The notes beneath the pieces were generated by a model, which made no database searches, had not been told where the DNA came from, and worked only from the letters and a program-made list of their open reading frames with translations. The position numbers and the translations under genes were made by a program. Below, one piece after another: positions 40,461 through 46,574 of a stretch of DNA of 64,000 nt (position 1 is its first letter; the number at the start of each line of letters is the position of its first letter). Where the stretch lies: the NCBI GenBank assembly GCA_947489525.1, contig CANLDW010000002.1:434001-498000 (forward strand), written 5' to 3'. This stretch comes from an uncultured Psychrobacter sp. GTDB taxonomy: Bacteria; Pseudomonadota; Gammaproteobacteria; Pseudomonadales; Moraxellaceae.

Positions 40461-41720
40461 CTATTGCGGCGGTGTTTGCGCTCTTTGCTCACGCATCACG
40501 CGTAAGTATTCTTGCACCGCTTTGTTGTGCTCAGCTAAGCTATTGGTAAACTTATGACCGCCAGTCCCTGTAGCGACAAAATACAGCGCTTCGCTATCAG
40601 CAGGATGCAAGGTTGCCTCAATAGACGCCGCTGATGGCAGGGCAATCGGTGTTGGCGGTAGACCGTCGATCTGATACGTATTATAGCCCGTCTTTTCATC
40701 GATATCAGCGCGGCGAATATTACCGTCGTAGCGGCTACCCATACCGTAGATAATCGTCGGATCGGTTTGCAAGCGCATACCTTGTTTGAGGCGATTGTTA
40801 AATACAGCAGAGACTAAGGGACGCTCTTCGGGGACGCTGGTTTCTTTTTCGATGATAGAGGCCATGATTAGCGCTTCATAAGGGCTATCGTACGGTAGAT
40901 CTGGCGCGCGGTTCTCCCACGCGGTAGTCAGTGCCTGCTGCTGGCGCTTATACAGATCGGTTAGCACTTGCTTATCACTGGCACCCTCACCGTAATAGTA
41001 CGTATCTGGAGTAAACCAGCCTTCAAGGTTGTAGCGGACAATAGGATCGTCGCTACTCGTCACCGACTCTGGTAAGACACCAACCAAATCAAGCGCTCGC
41101 GCGATGCTCTCATTATCACTACCAGCTATCAGCACTTCTTTTTTTATGCCGTCATTGTCACGTAAGTTTTGATACAAGTCCTGTACTGATTTGCCTTCGA
41201 TGACTTGCACTTTGACCATCGCTACTTTGGCGCCTTGTGCGAGGACTTGCAGGGCTTCTGCTACCGTTGGATTGGCGGGTAGCTCGTAGATACCGGCGTG
41301 TAGCGGTGCATCGATTTGCGATCTGATATACAACTTGGCAACTGTAGTGGAGAATAGCGGAACCTGTTGTTGCCACTGTGGCAGTAGACCGTAGTAAGTA
41401 TCGCCGCGCTCAATGGTCACTTTTTGCTGCGGCTGTTCAATGCGTCCAAACAGAGTCTGATAGACCATCGCCAGCAAAAACGCTGCGATAAGTCCTAGCA
41501 CCAGCAATATCTGATAACCGCGCTGCATAAAAAACGACGGATTGTCCTTTTTGTACTTACGCGGTTTGCTACCCCCACTGATGAGCGAGACATCCGTGTT
41601 CGACGCTTGGTCTTCAGGTAGGTTTACGGTGTCAACGCCTTCATTTACCCCTTTGCCTGTGGTATTTGCTGAGGTGTTATCGTTGTTATCTGAGGGTTTT
41701 TTGGACGCAGGGGTGCTCAT
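40461..41720 (-). CDS. mltG: Endolytic murein transglycosylase MltG
   Basis: Cleaves nascent glycan strands and limits their length. 419 residues: a polar cytoplasmic lead of about 60 residues rich in N, D and S, one membrane helix (ILLVLGLIAAFLLAMVYQTLF), a LysM-like subdomain, and the YceG catalytic domain with IMASIIEKETSVPEERPLVSAVFNNRL (its first glutamate is catalytic) and LPPTPIALPS. It is normally next to pabC; here a restriction-modification cassette lies between them. ATG at 41720. Confidence 0.95.
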   Translation of the reverse strand: MSTPASKKPSDNNDNTSANTTGKGVNEGVDTVNLPEDQASNTDVSLISGGSKPRKYKKDNPSFFMQRGYQILLVLGLIAAFLLAMVYQTLFGRIEQPQQKVTIERGDTYYGLLPQWQQQVPLFSTTVAKLYIRSQIDAPLHAGIYELPANPTVAEALQVLAQGAKVAMVKVQVIEGKSVQDLYQNLRDNDGIKKEVLIAGSDNESIARALDLVGVLPESVTSSDDPIVRYNLEGWFTPDTYYYGEGASDKQVLTDLYKRQQQALTTAWENRAPDLPYDSPYEALIMASIIEKETSVPEERPLVSAVFNNRLKQGMRLQTDPTIIYGMGSRYDGNIRRADIDEKTGYNTYQIDGLPPTPIALPSAASIEATLHPADSEALYFVATGTGGHKFTNSLAEHNKAVQEYLRVMREQRAQTPPQ

Positions 41721-41835: not shown

Positions 41836-41880
41836 CTTTCGTTGAATTTGGCAGTGTGTTCAATGAAATAAGGTAGAATG

Positions 41881-42780
41881 ATGGCTAAACCATTCATCAA
41901 GTGGGTAGGTGGTAAAACTCAGCTGATAACAGAAATTTCTCAACGTTTACCTAGTTATATTCAAGAAGGTTTGCCTTATATATATGTTGAGCCTTTTAGT
42001 GGGAGTGCTGCATTTGCACTACACCTCTTAGATAGTGAAAACCCTCCGTCTGCTGTCATTTTAAATGACATAAATATCGATCTTATAAACCTATATAGAG
42101 TTGTGAAGTCTAACCCTCATGAGTTATTAGAATTCTTGAAAAATATTCAGATAGAATATGACGCCCTAGAAGGTAAGGAAGCTAAACAACCTTATTACTA
42201 TGCTAAACGTGAGGCGTTTAACTTACGTAATACTGACGATGTTGAACATGCTGGCCTATTTATTTTCTTAAATCGTGCTGGTTTTAATGGCTTGTACCGT
42301 GTGAATCGTAAGAATGAATTCAATGTTCCTATTGGTAGTTATAAAAAGCCTAATTTCGTTTTTGAAGAAACCATCTTAAAAGCTTCAAAACTATTGAGTA
42401 ATGTAGAGATATACACTGGAAACTATAACGATACACTTCATCATTTAGAGAAATTCAATAGGCAAAAATTAGCAGTGTTTTTCTATCTTGATCCACCCTA
42501 TAAACCACTAAGCGACTCTTCTAGCTTTACTTCTTACGCAAAAGATAGCTTTGATGATGAAGATCAAGTAGAACTAAAGTCTTTTTGTGATTTATTGAAT
42601 GAAAGAAACTATCAGTGGCTACTAAGTAACTCTGATACAACAAACCTTGACTCTACAAATAGATTTTTCGATGAATTATACTCGAATTATACTATCGACA
42701 GAGTCAAGGCGAGCCGTAGTATCAACTCAAAAGGTTCAAAGCGCGGTCAAATTAATGAGTTATTAATTAGGAATTATTGA
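41881..42780 (+). CDS. DNA adenine methyltransferase, Dam/DpnM type (GATC)
   Basis: 299 residues from the ATG at 41881 (an ATG one codon earlier is equally possible; the AAGG site favours the second). An N6-adenine methylase of the alpha group: KPFIKWVGGKTQL, the SAM-binding YVEPFSGSAAFAL (motif I), LNRAGFNGLYRVN, and the catalytic FFYLDPPYKPL (motif IV, about 204-207). The end RGQINELLIRNY is typical of the Dam family. It should methylate GATC and protect the host from the nuclease encoded next to it. It is 3 bases upstream of the nuclease gene, so the two are one transcript. Confidence 0.94.
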   Translation: MAKPFIKWVGGKTQLITEISQRLPSYIQEGLPYIYVEPFSGSAAFALHLLDSENPPSAVILNDINIDLINLYRVVKSNPHELLEFLKNIQIEYDALEGKEAKQPYYYAKREAFNLRNTDDVEHAGLFIFLNRAGFNGLYRVNRKNEFNVPIGSYKKPNFVFEETILKASKLLSNVEIYTGNYNDTLHHLEKFNRQKLAVFFYLDPPYKPLSDSSSFTSYAKDSFDDEDQVELKSFCDLLNERNYQWLLSNSDTTNLDSTNRFFDELYSNYTIDRVKASRSINSKGSKRGQINELLIRNY

Positions 42781-42783
42781 AGT

Positions 42784-43671
42784 ATGGAAAAGCTATATTT
42801 ACCTGAGCACTTTTCTCAGTTTATTGAGACCTTAAACTTGAAAGGTATACTTCAATACGACTATTTTGTCAATTGGGCGAAAGTCCTAAACAATATCGAA
42901 CCTATAGAAAAAGAACTAAACCTTCTTAACACTGTGGTAGGTAAAGAAAATATTGAAGAGTTACTATTTAATATATTTAAAGAATATCCAAAAACAATTA
43001 AAACCATACCAGCTTTACTTGCTATTCGCGATAAATCTGTCGATATTCTTATTGATAAAACAAACTACATTCATAAGCACTTTAACTTTAGTCAAAAAGA
43101 GTTTTCTGATAGCGACATAGATAGCTTAGTTAACTTTGTTATACAAAGTGGACTTGGTGAACTGATTAAGAATAAGCAGATTAAAAGCTTACCTGACTAT
43201 TGTACTGGTGTAGAAGTCGGACTAGATTCGAATGGACGTAAAAACCGTGGTGGCACCCAAATGGAGCAGCTTGTTGAGTCCTTCATTGCTATACTCTGTC
43301 ACGAATATGATCTAGAGTACCTCACTCAGGCCAATGCAAAGAAAATTAAAGAGACATGGAATATAGAGTTACAAGTCGATAAGTCCTCCAGAATTATTGA
43401 TTTTGTTATATATAGGGAGCAAGATAGTAAGCTCTTCTTCATCGAAGTTAATTTTTATAGTGGCGGTGGCTCTAAACTCAAGTCTACTGCTACAGAATAT
43501 GTAGAAATGAGTCGATTTTGGAAAAGCCAAGATGTAGAGTTTATCTGGATCACAGATGGTAAGGGTTGGTCCAACACTCAAAACCCTCTTAGAGATTATT
43601 TTGAGCATGGCAACCTGTTGATTAATATTGATATGCTACAAAATGGATATTTACAAAAAATTATTCTATAG
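42784..43671 (+). CDS. Type II restriction endonuclease, DpnII/MboI family
   Basis: 295 residues. The family is recognised from the C-terminal half: GVEVGLDSNGRKNRGGTQME, then SRIIDFVIYRE with Asp206, and FFIEVNFYSGGGSKLKSTA with Glu221 and a following NFYSGGGSKL that is characteristic of DpnII-like enzymes (PD-(D/E)xK fold). It should cut unmethylated GATC. ATG at 42784 follows the methylase stop by 3 bases. Its last 6 bases overlap the stop of the convergent gene at 43666. Confidence 0.9.
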   Translation: MEKLYLPEHFSQFIETLNLKGILQYDYFVNWAKVLNNIEPIEKELNLLNTVVGKENIEELLFNIFKEYPKTIKTIPALLAIRDKSVDILIDKTNYIHKHFNFSQKEFSDSDIDSLVNFVIQSGLGELIKNKQIKSLPDYCTGVEVGLDSNGRKNRGGTQMEQLVESFIAILCHEYDLEYLTQANAKKIKETWNIELQVDKSSRIIDFVIYREQDSKLFFIEVNFYSGGGSKLKSTATEYVEMSRFWKSQDVEFIWITDGKGWSNTQNPLRDYFEHGNLLINIDMLQNGYLQKIIL

Positions 43672-44202
43672 TAATTTGCAACTTACTAGATAGTTATAGA
43701 GTTTTGCTCTACCACTATAGCCCCAATAAGTTATGTCTTGCTCTATAAATAACCATTTAAGAGTAAGACATACCTCCTCAGGCGTTAGACGCCCTACTGG
43801 TAAATCAAGACTTCTCAAATCTTCGATTATTTGACTATCATTTTCACAATTATATATAGATACTATTTTTTCAGCCAATAAAGCATAAGCGGCTTCATCA
43901 TAGTTCTTCTTTTCTGTCAAATCTTCTATTATATGTTGATGAGAAGGACTTCTAGTTCGTCTAGTTCTTCCCTGAAAATAGACATCTCTGAACTTTATCC
44001 TGAAGTCCATTCCTTTATTCAATTGCGTTTGACGAGCAATGATTATATCTCTATTTTCACACTCTTCGACGATATATTCATATCGCTGAGATTCATTGAT
44101 ATTTCCTGGTAACTCATCTAAAAAAACGTTGATAACGAATCTACGTATCTCAGCTCTATTAAGACCGCTAGGTAAATCGAGTCTTTCAGTATGTAGCGCC
44201 AT
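43666..44202 (-). CDS. Unknown protein coupled to the R-M controller
   Basis: 178 residues from the ATG at 44202 (AAGGA 6 bases upstream; an ATG at 44208 is too close to it). I do not recognise the family. It is soluble and mixed charge, with an N-terminal AEIRRFVINVFLDELPG, a central basic patch FQGRTRRTRSPSHQH, acidic helices and the C-terminal LKWLFIEQDITYWGYSGRAKLY, which looks like a conserved motif. No PD-(D/E)xK, HNH or methylase motif is evident. The gene starts 9 bases after the controller stop, so it is translated with it. Its stop overlaps the stop of the endonuclease gene. A role in the restriction system is inferred from position. Confidence 0.8.
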   Translation of the reverse strand: MALHTERLDLPSGLNRAEIRRFVINVFLDELPGNINESQRYEYIVEECENRDIIIARQTQLNKGMDFRIKFRDVYFQGRTRRTRSPSHQHIIEDLTEKKNYDEAAYALLAEKIVSIYNCENDSQIIEDLRSLDLPVGRLTPEEVCLTLKWLFIEQDITYWGYSGRAKLYNYLVSCKLL

Positions 44203-44211
44203 AACCATTCC

Positions 44212-44424
44212 TTATATATTAAATAACTCCGATAAACTCATGTCAAATGCACTTGCGAATAACTCTATATTTGTAAGTCTCAAATCACGCTCACCACGCT
44301 CTACCATGCCAATATAGTTGTAGTGAAATCCTGTTATTACAGCTAACTGTTTTTGAGTGAGCTTGCGTCCTTTTCGTAGTGTTCTGATACGCTGCCCAAA
44401 CTTAATTAAAACCGAACTTTCCAT
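44212..44424 (-). CDS. Xre-type helix-turn-helix controller of the R-M system
   Basis: 70 residues, the size of R-M controller (C) proteins. A single HTH: GQRIRTLRKGRKLTQKQLA, TGFHYNYIGMVERGERDLRLTNIELFASAFDMSLSELF. The ATG at 44424 is used because AAAGGTG lies 8 bases upstream; a TTG two codons earlier is not needed. Transcribed away from the 82-residue gene at 44515, with the unknown 178-residue gene downstream. C proteins usually bind their own promoter and delay nuclease expression after entry; here the controlled partner is unusual. Confidence 0.88.
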   Translation of the reverse strand: MESSVLIKFGQRIRTLRKGRKLTQKQLAVITGFHYNYIGMVERGERDLRLTNIELFASAFDMSLSELFNI

Positions 44425-44457: not shown

Positions 44458-44474
44458 AACACACAATAAGTGTT
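44458..44474. promoter_or_regulatory. Possible controller operator
   Basis: AACACACAATAAGTGTT: inverted AACAC / GTGTT around an AT-rich centre, in the 90-base gap between the controller gene and the divergent small gene. The symmetry is short, so this is tentative. Confidence 0.3.
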
Positions 44475-44514: not shown

Positions 44515-44763
44515 ATGATAAGCATCGACAATATTACTATTAATATAAATACTCCCTTACCTGTATCAGATGACTTGTTAAAAACCCAAAGTCCAATAAT
44601 TGTTAGAGATGAACTAACCAATATGCTACGTATTATTAGTAAAGATTCTCGGTTTGTTGGACAAACTATTATTATTCCTAGTGAATGCGAACAGTACGGT
44701 TTTATAGAAGGTGAGTTTGACTTACCTACAATGCTTTACTTCTTAGCCGATATGTTGGAGTAA
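44515..44763 (+). CDS. Small unknown protein upstream of the second methylase
   Basis: 82 residues, acidic, no recognised domain. Predicted mixed alpha/beta: ISIDNITININTPLP, then RDELTNMLRIISKD, TIIIPSECEQYGF and LPTMLYFLADMLE. ATG at 44515 has a weak ribosome site (AGGACAATGCT). Its stop is 2 bases before the second methylase start, so the two are translationally linked. It could be a small regulator or partner of the methylase; nothing in the sequence decides. Confidence 0.6.
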   Translation: MISIDNITININTPLPVSDDLLKTQSPIIVRDELTNMLRIISKDSRFVGQTIIIPSECEQYGFIEGEFDLPTMLYFLADMLE

Positions 44764-44765
44764 AT

Positions 44766-45596
44766 ATGTCAGATAATTTATTTTTTCATAGTGAACAAGC
44801 CGATTTTAGTCTAATGAAAGGTAACTGCTTAACACTTATCCCGAAAATAGAGAAAAGTATAGATATGGTTTTTGCTGATCCGCCATACTTCCTATCTAAT
44901 GACGGTCTCACAGTAAAAAATGGTAAAGTCCAATCCGTAAATAAAGGCAAATGGGATAAGCTGATCAGTGACGATGATGCCTACGCTTTTACTATTGAAT
45001 GGCTGTCAGCAGTACGTGAAAAAATGGCGGACAATGCCACGATTTGGGTTAGCGGTACGCATCATAATATATTTACTCTAGGTCGCATTCTACCCCAGTT
45101 GGGTTTTAAAATACTTAACGTTATCACGTGGGAGAAAACCAATCCACCACCTAATTTCTCTTGCCGGTTTTTTACTCATTCAACGGAGTTCATCATTTGG
45201 GCGCGTAAACATCCTAAAGTTCCGCATCATTACGACTACGATTTAATGAAAAAGCTAAACGGTGACAAGCAAATGAAAGATGTTTGGCGTTTACCTGCAA
45301 TCGCTAAGTGGGAAAAGACTTGTGGCAAACATCCTACGCAGAAACCTTTAGCACTGCTAGCACAAATTATTTTAGCTTCTACTAAGAAAAATGCTGTCAT
45401 ACTCGATCCGTTTGCAGGATCTTCAACGACGGGCATCGCAAGTAATGTGTTAGGGAGAAATTTTATTGGTATTGACCAAGAGCTTGAATATTTACAGCTG
45501 AGCCAAGCTCGTTATGAAGACTTGCAAAATGAAGGTAGGAAAGAGTTTTTTAAGCAACACTTTTACCGTTTGCTTAAGAAGGAAAGCGTCTCGTAA
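44766..45596 (+). CDS. Second DNA adenine methyltransferase, DpnA type
   Basis: 276 residues with the beta-group order: DPPY first (MVFADPPYFLSNDG, about 34-47) and the SAM motif later (ILDPFAGSSTTGIAS, 212-226). This is closest in outline to DpnA, the second DpnII-system methylase, which can also modify single-stranded GATC and helps protect incoming DNA. HPTQKPLALLAQIIL is also typical. The stop codon directly abuts the stop codon of pabC on the other strand, with no intervening base. Confidence 0.92.
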   Translation: MSDNLFFHSEQADFSLMKGNCLTLIPKIEKSIDMVFADPPYFLSNDGLTVKNGKVQSVNKGKWDKLISDDDAYAFTIEWLSAVREKMADNATIWVSGTHHNIFTLGRILPQLGFKILNVITWEKTNPPPNFSCRFFTHSTEFIIWARKHPKVPHHYDYDLMKKLNGDKQMKDVWRLPAIAKWEKTCGKHPTQKPLALLAQIILASTKKNAVILDPFAGSSTTGIASNVLGRNFIGIDQELEYLQLSQARYEDLQNEGRKEFFKQHFYRLLKKESVS

Positions 45597-46574
45597 CTAA
45601 TCCATCTCCACCACCGCCCCCGATAACAACCTTAAAGCAGTAATAGGCATCACCCCGCGCACCGCATTACAAAAGAACATCTGGCTAATCTTTGGCAAGT
45701 CTTTATCCTCAAGAGCACGCAGGATAACCGGATTGTCGGTTTGAGATAAGCTATCGATAATGACTTGACGCATGACGCCCGCGACCCCTGACTCAGTCAT
45801 AGGCGGGGTGAACCACTGACCTTTAGTAAGATAATGAGTTGAATAATCAGCAGTAGGGGTAGTAGCATGATGACTTTGCGTATGGTCATCGTTGTGTAAG
45901 GGGGCTAATTGATAAAAAACATTGCTCATTGTGCCCTCCACCCAAGAGCCACTCATATCACGTACGAGTCCCTCACCTATAGATGCAGTGCCATTTGCGT
46001 CCTGCGCTTTATAGCGTTGTAGCTCGCCGCTTGCCAACACGCTATCGAGACGGTTGAGGCTTTTGAGTCCAGCTAGAGGGGGCGGCAGACATGCCAGCAT
46101 GGATGTCAAACAAACTGCGATTGTGCTTGGTTGTAGTAGTAGCCTTTGCTGAGTCGGTAGCGTTAATGGCGCAGCTTCGGTGATAAATGCTGGCGTAGAT
46201 TGCAGCCAAATATCACAGGTACGGCCTAAGTCTGTCGGTGCAAAGCCATAGCCGCGCAGCGCTTGCGCCTTACGCGTTATAACCAGCTTGAGTATGCCTT
46301 GTCCAAGCGCGCGCGCCTGCGTTTGTATAGCTAACGAGAGCGCCTGAATATTGATATCGAGCTGTAGCGCCTTGGCATGCGATTGCAAACGCTGCTTGTG
46401 GTAGTCAAGCCATAACACGCTGCCATCCGTGACGCCCATCGTGGTAAAGAACCCATCAGCGTAGCTCAGTCCTCGATTATCAAGAGGTAGCGCTGTAGTG
46501 TCTATTGCTACAAAGTCGGCGTCTTTAGCATAAAAGTACTGCCAGTGGCTTGTACTCGTATCTGCCCTCACCAC
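45597..46574 (-). CDS. pabC: Aminodeoxychorismate lyase
   Basis: PLP fold-type IV enzyme that releases pyruvate from aminodeoxychorismate to give p-aminobenzoate for folate. 325 residues, longer than E. coli PabC (269). Seen: NRGLSYADGFFTTMGVTDG, LDYHKQRLQSHAKAL, the ILKLVITRKAQALRGYGF segment, SLNRLDSVLA and TESGVAGVMRQVII near the phosphate site. The lysine position could not be fixed with certainty. The start is GTG at 46574, which overlaps the stop of the upstream lipoprotein gene by one base (TAGTG), so translation is probably coupled. Confidence 0.88.
   Translation of the reverse strand: MVRADTSTSHWQYFYAKDADFVAIDTTALPLDNRGLSYADGFFTTMGVTDGSVLWLDYHKQRLQSHAKALQLDINIQALSLAIQTQARALGQGILKLVITRKAQALRGYGFAPTDLGRTCDIWLQSTPAFITEAAPLTLPTQQRLLLQPSTIAVCLTSMLACLPPPLAGLKSLNRLDSVLASGELQRYKAQDANGTASIGEGLVRDMSGSWVEGTMSNVFYQLAPLHNDDHTQSHHATTPTADYSTHYLTKGQWFTPPMTESGVAGVMRQVIIDSLSQTDNPVILRALEDKDLPKISQMFFCNAVRGVMPITALRLLSGAVVEMD

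What the first reader, a model, noticed from the sequence alone, without database searches (positions are those of the whole stretch)
43666..44424. Unknown 178-residue protein translationally coupled to the R-M controller
In classical controller-type systems the C gene is followed by the restriction gene. Here the controller is followed within 9 bases by a protein with no recognised nuclease or methylase motif but with a conserved-looking C-terminal EQDITYWGYSGRAKLY. The nuclease is instead paired with the Dam-type methylase on the other strand. The unknown protein could be an accessory restriction, anti-restriction or regulatory factor.
Basis: partly seen in the sequence, partly recalled or inferred. 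Interest (0 to 1): 0.65.

Follow-up and report, generated by a model that had tools for sequence, protein, structure and literature searches.

The report
Unrecognised effector in GATC restriction systems
A small protein of unknown type sits where a bacterial DNA-defence system often keeps its DNA-cutting enzyme, and its relatives in bacteria and archaea usually sit beside the same kinds of DNA-marking enzyme, so it is probably an undescribed weapon of these systems.

Summary
Window 43666-44202 (-), here X, encodes 178 aa, starts 9 bases after the controller gene C, and has no Pfam or NCBIfam match. Its family is widespread: 112 relatives in one scan, 80 returned. Of 89 non-duplicate loci, 85 hold a Dam- or DpnA-type methylase within 4.5 kb; 20 of those 85 hold none of three nuclease families seen in the rest. 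Of 24 other C-like genes in X loci, 21 lead an operon with X, sometimes with a MutH-like or PD-(D/E)XK-like nuclease, never with a methylase or DpnII. In 13 genomes of the genus with C, the next gene is MutH-like (6), PD-(D/E)XK-like (2), a methylase (3), unassigned (1) or X (window). The eight nuclease cases share the window's exact C-box. I commit to X being a restriction-side effector, probably attacking unmethylated GATC itself; GATC is inferred from the methylase families. The chemistry is unknown: E154 is invariant in 78 sequences, and a weak likeness to ribosome-inactivating N-glycosidases is only a lead.

The parts
43666..44202 (-). X, 178-aa protein of an unrecognised family; in the slot after C
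44208..44214 (-). C stop codon (44214-44212) overlapping a Shine-Dalgarno-like AAGGA before X; alternative ATG at 44208
   Evidence: read from the sequence; role inferred
44212..44424 (-). C, HTH_3 controller-like protein (70 aa)
   Evidence: PF01381 E 1.3e-11; 58-68% identical in 11 other genomes of the genus with this system, 47% in a twelfth with another system
44459..44473 (-). C-box ACACTTATTGTGTGT upstream of C-X (binding not tested)
   Evidence: identical before C in L002, L003, L084 (same family), L004 (Flavobacteriia) and eight other genomes of the genus; only exact copy in the window
41878..42780 (+). Dam-family (D12) adenine methylase
   Evidence: PF02086 E 7.3e-58, TIGR00571 E 1.1e-82
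42784..43671 (+). DpnII-family restriction endonuclease
   Evidence: PF04556 E 8.7e-92; 65-67% identical to enzymes of two Psychrobacter plasmids
44515..44763 (+). 82-aa ORF of unknown function, divergent from C, before the DpnA-like gene
   Evidence: no Pfam match; kept in L004, L046, L052, L084 and in 11 other genomes of the genus, 50-68% identical
44766..45596 (+). DpnA/CcrM-like DNA methylase
   Evidence: PF01555 E 5.2e-57

Best explanation
X is a restriction-side effector of GATC-type R-M systems. The controller C turns on the C-X operon from a C-box, so X appears late, after the Dam and DpnA-like methylases have marked host DNA. X then most likely attacks DNA carrying unmethylated GATC itself, beside or instead of DpnII, MutH-like or PD-(D/E)XK-like nucleases. 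Shown by sequence: the family, its neighbours, the operon, the slot, the C-box, the conserved residues. Inferred: that C controls X, that GATC is the target (from the methylase and nuclease families), and that X is itself the attacking enzyme. Not known: whether it cuts the backbone or removes a base.
For: (a) 85 of 89 non-duplicate X loci hold a Dam- or DpnA-type methylase within 4.5 kb and 76 of 89 a labelled R-M gene within 100 bp. (b) 20 of those 85 have no DpnII, MutH-like or P3 nuclease nearby; 10 of these 20 have at least 4 kb of sequence on both sides (one of the 10, L060, carries DpnI). Of 14 X genomes searched for PF04556, the 12 with methylase+X loci have none. (c) Of 24 C-like genes in X loci outside the window, 21 lead an operon with X: 11 X alone, 4 X-MutH, 4 P3-X, 1 X-P3, 1 X-P3-C; 0 of 21 hold a methylase or DpnII. 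(d) Survey that does not start from X: 13 of 105 genomes of the genus, window included, have C; the next gene is MutH-like in 6, P3 in 2, Dam in 3, X in the window, an unassigned protein in 1. The MutH-like family matches solved MutH over its length, E 1.5e-7. (e) The C-box is identical in the window and in the eight genomes with MutH-like or P3 in the slot, and absent as an exact copy in the three with Dam there. (f) Eight divergent X relatives in archaea, all of the eight examined, lie beside a gene that matches the Dam or DpnA profile. (g) One X-Dam fused reading frame, L080. (h) Enzyme-like conservation: 16 invariant columns over 78 sequences. (i) In a sample of 369 genomes of the class, PF04556 matched 6; only two matches are long, the window's and G455, and both are beside X.
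Against: No activity is shown. No nuclease or glycosylase profile matches the window's X. In 65 of the 85 methylase loci a likely nuclease is also there, so X could be its helper. Four of 89 loci have no labelled methylase nearby (L044, L061, L062, L066; L061 and L062 lie near a contig end). In three genomes of the genus the gene after C is a methylase, so the slot is not reserved for restriction genes. L060/L138 pairs X with DpnI (PF06044), which cuts methylated GATC (PMC3573125): hard to square with X attacking unmethylated GATC unless the partner methylase reads another site. The archaeal methylase-only loci are mostly one clade (13 of its 15 rows), though at least 4 changes of that label are forced on the tree. 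MutH-like and P3 systems of the genus do without X.
Confidence: 0.52

Rival explanations
1. X is a helper of the nucleases (recruiter, specificity or stability factor for DpnII, MutH-like and PD-(D/E)XK-like enzymes), without activity of its own.
For: 65 of 85 methylase loci also hold one of the three nuclease families; X shares an operon with MutH-like or P3 genes in 10 of 21 C-led operons.
Against: 20 methylase loci hold none of the three nucleases. MutH-like and P3 genes occur without X in eight genomes of the genus and DpnII without X on two Psychrobacter plasmids. One helper for three different nucleases seems unlikely.
Confidence: 0.18
2. X is a partner or regulator of the methylases (for example it times, targets or titrates Dam/DpnA).
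For: The methylase is the most constant neighbour (85 of 89); X-Dam fusion in L080.
Against: In C-led operons X travels with nucleases and never with a methylase (0 of 21); related Dam, DpnA-like and C genes occur without X in the genus. A constant methylase is equally expected if X is the restriction half.
Confidence: 0.14
3. X handles incoming single-stranded DNA during transformation, with the DpnA-type methylase.
For: DpnA acts on single-stranded transforming DNA in pneumococcus (PMC3573125, abstract and passages), and DpnA-like genes often sit by X.
Against: X+Dam loci such as L027, L034, L036, L048, L065 and L077 show no DpnA-like gene in the stretch held.
Confidence: 0.08
4. X is an anti-restriction or phage-derived factor.
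For: 87 Streptomyces phage records carry a very distant relative, phrog_11668.
Against: The 11 viral contigs that carry X proper all carry a Dam- or DpnA-type methylase too. X shares C-led operons with nucleases.
Confidence: 0.04

Closest known systems
C-controlled Type II R-M systems (C gene followed by the restriction gene; recalled)
   Same: HTH controller, conserved box upstream, X next in the same operon
   Different: the gene in the slot is no recognised nuclease, and a DpnII enzyme is coded with Dam on the other strand
DpnII GATC systems (Dam-type methylase, DpnA-type methylase, DpnII nuclease)
   Same: all three are in the window
   Different: the passages seen on pneumococcal DpnII name dpnM, dpnA and dpnB (PMC3573125); X, C and the 82-aa ORF are extra
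PabI family restriction glycosylases (PMC10273834: passages and section 6.3)
   Same: precedent for a restriction enzyme that removes a base and is blocked by methylation
   Different: R.PabI reads GTAC (abstract in the listing); no relationship to X was detected, but it was not tested directly
Ribosome-inactivating protein fold (adenine N-glycosidases)
   Same: the only rows listed with more than 110 aligned residues for both X models; invariant Glu near the end of the long helix
   Different: VIA Z at most 4.4, rmsd 4.5-6.7; no Arg three residues after the Glu
phrog_11668 of Streptomyces phages
   Same: similar predicted fold (probability 1.00, TM 0.55, E 7.5e-3) and weak profile match (best E 1.2e-5, 16 of 78 members)
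   Different: function unknown; its neighbours were not analysed

Membership tests
C-controlled restriction gene | lies directly downstream of C in one operon | tested here: met
   window; 21 of 24 other C-like genes in X loci lead an X-containing operon, X directly next in 17
C-controlled restriction gene | conserved box upstream of the C-led operon | tested here: met
   exact 15-mer conserved before C in eight genomes of the genus and in L002, L003, L004, L084; binding not tested
C-controlled restriction gene | product restricts unmethylated DNA | not testable with these tools
   needs protein work
PD-(D/E)XK, HNH, GIY-YIG, PLD nucleases | match to a sequence profile | tested here: not met
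   0 Pfam and 0 NCBIfam families for the window's X at E<=1; that Pfam holds models of each of these kinds is recalled, except PD-(D/E)XK (seen)
PD-(D/E)XK nucleases | shared fold | tested here: inconclusive
   two confident models (pLDDT 93.8, 95.1); no Foldseek match with E<=0.001
Ribosome-inactivating N-glycosidase fold | shared fold above noise | tested here: inconclusive
   Z 4.4 over 126 residues, rmsd 4.9; Z 4.0 over 121, rmsd 5.5, tied with partial matches up to Z 4.4
Ribosome-inactivating N-glycosidase fold | catalytic Glu and Arg on the central helix (recalled) | tested here: inconclusive
   E154 invariant in 78 of 78; R165 invariant at +11; no Arg at +3 in the window's X; no coordinates to superpose
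PabI restriction glycosylases | sequence or fold relationship | tested here: inconclusive
   no Pfam or NCBIfam match of X, but no call shows that these libraries hold a PabI model
DpnII-type R-M system (whole locus) | Dam-type methylase, DpnII nuclease, DpnA-type methylase | tested here: met

The most novel reading that the evidence does not exclude
X is a base-excision restriction enzyme: an adenine N-glycosidase with a fold like ribosome-inactivating proteins that removes the unmethylated adenine of GATC. This would be a second family of restriction glycosylases beside PabI, spread over many bacterial and archaeal phyla.
Probability: 0.12. Interest if true: 0.9.

Novelty: new variant of a known kind. 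Interest (0 to 1): 0.62.

Why it matters
GATC systems are textbook R-M systems, yet here is a conserved component of bacteria and archaea without a convincing match in Pfam, NCBIfam or PADLOC and not met in the paper searches made (listings, and passages of six papers). If X is an effector, some methylases that look like orphans (methylase plus X) are complete defence systems, and small DNA-attacking enzymes remain hidden beside known methylases. A two-gene archaeal X+Dam pair makes this directly testable.

Tried and rejected
DpnII-only association: rejected, because X also occurs with MutH-like and P3 nucleases or with none of the three. 19 plasmid records hold a DpnII relative; X of the window finds no plasmid at E<=0.01, and a streptococcal X finds at E<=0.001 only one weak 94-residue hit on a Leuconostoc plasmid (not one of the 19 by organism), which lies by Dam and a P3-like gene.

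X as an escort of archaeal orphan Dam in general: not supported; X is in 3 of 200 genomes of the phylum of G715, one of them only a distant match.

Known fold: Foldseek against PDB found nothing at E<=0.001 for either model. VIA lists ribosome-inactivating proteins as the long matches of both models, but Z is at most 4.4 and in the second model shorter partial matches score as high, so this stays a lead. I compared no toxin sequence and cannot superpose active sites. Promoter- and terminator-like sites were no more frequent than in shuffles. GATC is not depleted in the window, 255 against 247 expected. PDB searches with X profiles found nothing credible. Members of the family matched 35 Pfam and 7 PADLOC families weakly at E<=1, each in 1-3 of 78 members among those shown. 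My recollection that MJ0599 of Methanocaldococcus might be X could not be tested (one search found nothing on it).

Weak spots of the nuclease labels: single MutH-like proteins match Pfam MutH or MvaI_BcnI only below the cut-offs and L172 matches neither; the case rests on the profile match to solved MutH. P3 passes the PDDEXK_11 cut-off in L075 but not in L169 and L185, and has no credible PDB match. The DUF6996/DUF6997 match was seen in L170/L188 and L187; L189 is alike by eye.

Limits: 32 of the 112 relatives were not returned. Rows dropped as duplicates before counting: L001, L013, L014, L033, L082, L083, L094; some kept rows are still near-copies (L012/L016, L021/L030/L091/L092). The DpnA label covers more than one subfamily of methylase, whose sites are unknown. 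Most loci were found through X; the PF04556 searches, the pabC search, the C search and the plasmid DpnII search were not. For the methylase-only loci, 68 of 81 listed flanking ORFs were scanned with Pfam and only 25 of 104 families were shown; nine neighbours scanned one by one included a PIN protein (L077) and a transposase (L027) but no named restriction enzyme; L065:4196-5002 looks partly nuclease-like by eye. The phage residue match was read by eye. L126, a weak hit with stops, was not followed.

Full report
WHAT IS THERE; from left to right the locus holds a Dam-family methylase (41878-42780, +), a DpnII-family nuclease (42784-43671, +), X (43666-44202, -), a controller-like HTH protein C (44212-44424, -), an 82-aa ORF (44515-44763, +) and a DpnA/CcrM-like methylase (44766-45596, +). 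X starts 9 bases after the stop of C, with an AAGGA overlapping that stop. X has no Pfam or NCBIfam match at E<=1.

THE FAMILY. One scan of one genome per species found 112 relatives, of which 80 were returned, from Pseudomonadota to DPANN archaea. 78 sequences, the window's included, align with 16 invariant columns: G33, G64, D66, F67, P86, K149, W150, L151, F152, I153, E154, Q155, D156, W160, G164, R165 (13 of these 16 recounted). In the host's family X is in 4 of 348 genomes, counting the window's own. The window copy has the longest end branch of the 78 (1.06) and groups with Moraxella copies; it is the only one with Q at position 58, where 77 have P.

CONTEXT. I labelled genes with profiles built here and tabulated 89 non-duplicate loci: 85 hold a Dam- or DpnA-type methylase within 4.5 kb; with it are DpnII alone in 32, MutH-like alone in 9, P3 alone in 7, two or three of these in 17, and none of them in 20. 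The other four hold no labelled methylase (one of them has P3). P3 is a family of about 173 aa with an invariant E-x-K that touches Pfam PDDEXK_11. The MutH-like family matches solved MutH along its length at E 1.5e-7. In 14 X genomes searched for PF04556 the 12 with methylase+X loci have none; of the other two, whose X lies away from a methylase, one has DpnII plus Dam on a separate contig. Many of these genomes are metagenome bins and may be incomplete.

THE C OPERON. Of 24 C-like genes in X loci outside the window, 21 lead a same-strand run of labelled genes that contains X, and 0 of those 21 runs contain a methylase or DpnII. The other 3 C-like genes lead no such run.

A SURVEY THAT STARTS FROM C. 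Of 105 genomes of the genus, 13 have C, the window's included. The gene after C is MutH-like in L179, L180, L181, L183, L184, L186; P3 in L182, L185; Dam in L187, L188, L189, followed by a DUF6996/DUF6997-type protein; X in the window; and an unassigned 181-aa protein in L190, which is a different system. In the eleven besides L190 and the window, C is 58-68%, the 82-aa ORF 50-68% and the DpnA-like protein 74-87% identical to the window's; Dam is 66-79% in eight and 39-41% in three. Ten of the eleven lie beside pabC, as the window's locus does, and the seven stretches read further show mltG on the other side. So X takes the place of a nuclease in what looks like one chassis, although in three genomes that place begins with a methylase.

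REGULATION. ACACTTATTGTGTGT lies 35-49 bases before the C start (44459-44473, -). It is identical in the eight genomes of the genus with MutH-like or P3 in the slot, in L002, L003 and L084 of the same family, and in the Flavobacteriia locus L004; no exact copy is in L187-L190. This fits delayed, C-driven expression of X; it was not tested.

DISTANT RELATIVES. Archaeal searches gave very divergent X (E 1.2e-7 to 1.7e-4): eight loci examined, all beside a gene matching the Dam or DpnA profile, five of them beside Dam. Read by eye on these alignments, R57-P58, F67, H88 and an E-Q-(D/E) stretch recur in most; D66 is often N. E154 is kept in 7 of these 8 by profile alignment and in L132 only if shifted by one residue. 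Streptomyces phages carry a still more distant relative.

STRUCTURE. Two confident models (pLDDT 93.8 and 95.1) show a strand, a helix, an antiparallel sheet and then helices. No PDB match is significant. Ribosome-inactivating proteins are the longest weak matches in both (Z up to 4.4 and 4.0). I treat this as a lead for N-glycosidase chemistry, no more.

THE DPNII PAIR. Two Psychrobacter plasmids carry Dam plus a DpnII enzyme 65-67% identical to the window's; the stretches read (7.6 of 8.2 kb and 7.2 of 11.2 kb) match no X, C or DpnA profile. So DpnII occurs without X. The window's Dam is 74-78% identical to four chassis Dam proteins of the genus, 66% to a fifth from another site, and 71% to the plasmid Dam, so the window locus may be the chassis with a DpnII gene added; that history is inferred and the margin is small. 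The host genus is inferred to be Psychrobacter from these hits.

CONCLUSION. X is a restriction-side component by operon, slot and company, and in methylase-only loci it is the only candidate effector recognised. That it is itself the attacking enzyme is my best reading (0.52). Whether it is a nuclease or a glycosylase is open.

Noticed in passing
40461-41720 and 45597-46574 (flanks); L169-L177: The pabC-mltG junction is a hotspot for GATC-type systems in this genus: no system between the two genes (L175, L176), C-MutH, C-P3, C-Dam-DUF6997, or a gene resembling DpnI by eye in L173, L174 and L177 with a split, shortened or absent DpnA-like gene, reminiscent of the DpnI/DpnII exchange of pneumococcus.
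   Followed up: partly
L191, L192: Psychrobacter plasmids pYP14d and pA17P1 carry an adjacent Dam and DpnII pair related to the window's.
   Followed up: yes
44515-44763: 82-aa ORF without Pfam match, kept divergent from C and before the DpnA-like gene in 11 other genomes of the genus and in L004, L046, L052, L084; function unknown.
   Followed up: partly
L080:6001-7455; L005, L017, L055, L069, L074: One X-Dam fused open frame, and five single open frames that hold both Dam and DpnII.
   Followed up: no
L138:2186-4506 (same gene set as L060): X beside a DpnI gene (PF06044) and a DpnA-like methylase in a Woesearchaeote, odd because DpnI cuts methylated GATC.
   Followed up: partly
L132, L066: X-like genes near a DndB-domain protein (L132, PF14072) or one that resembles it by eye (L066).
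   Followed up: no
L087:44221-44817: Streptomyces phages (87 records) carry a distant X-like protein, phrog_11668.
   Followed up: partly
L095: A viral contig with X, MutH-like, P3, DpnII, Dam and DpnA-like genes together, that is, four candidate effectors in one system.
   Followed up: no
L116/L127, L118/L128: In two archaeal genomes X is split over two frames or broken by stops.
   Followed up: no
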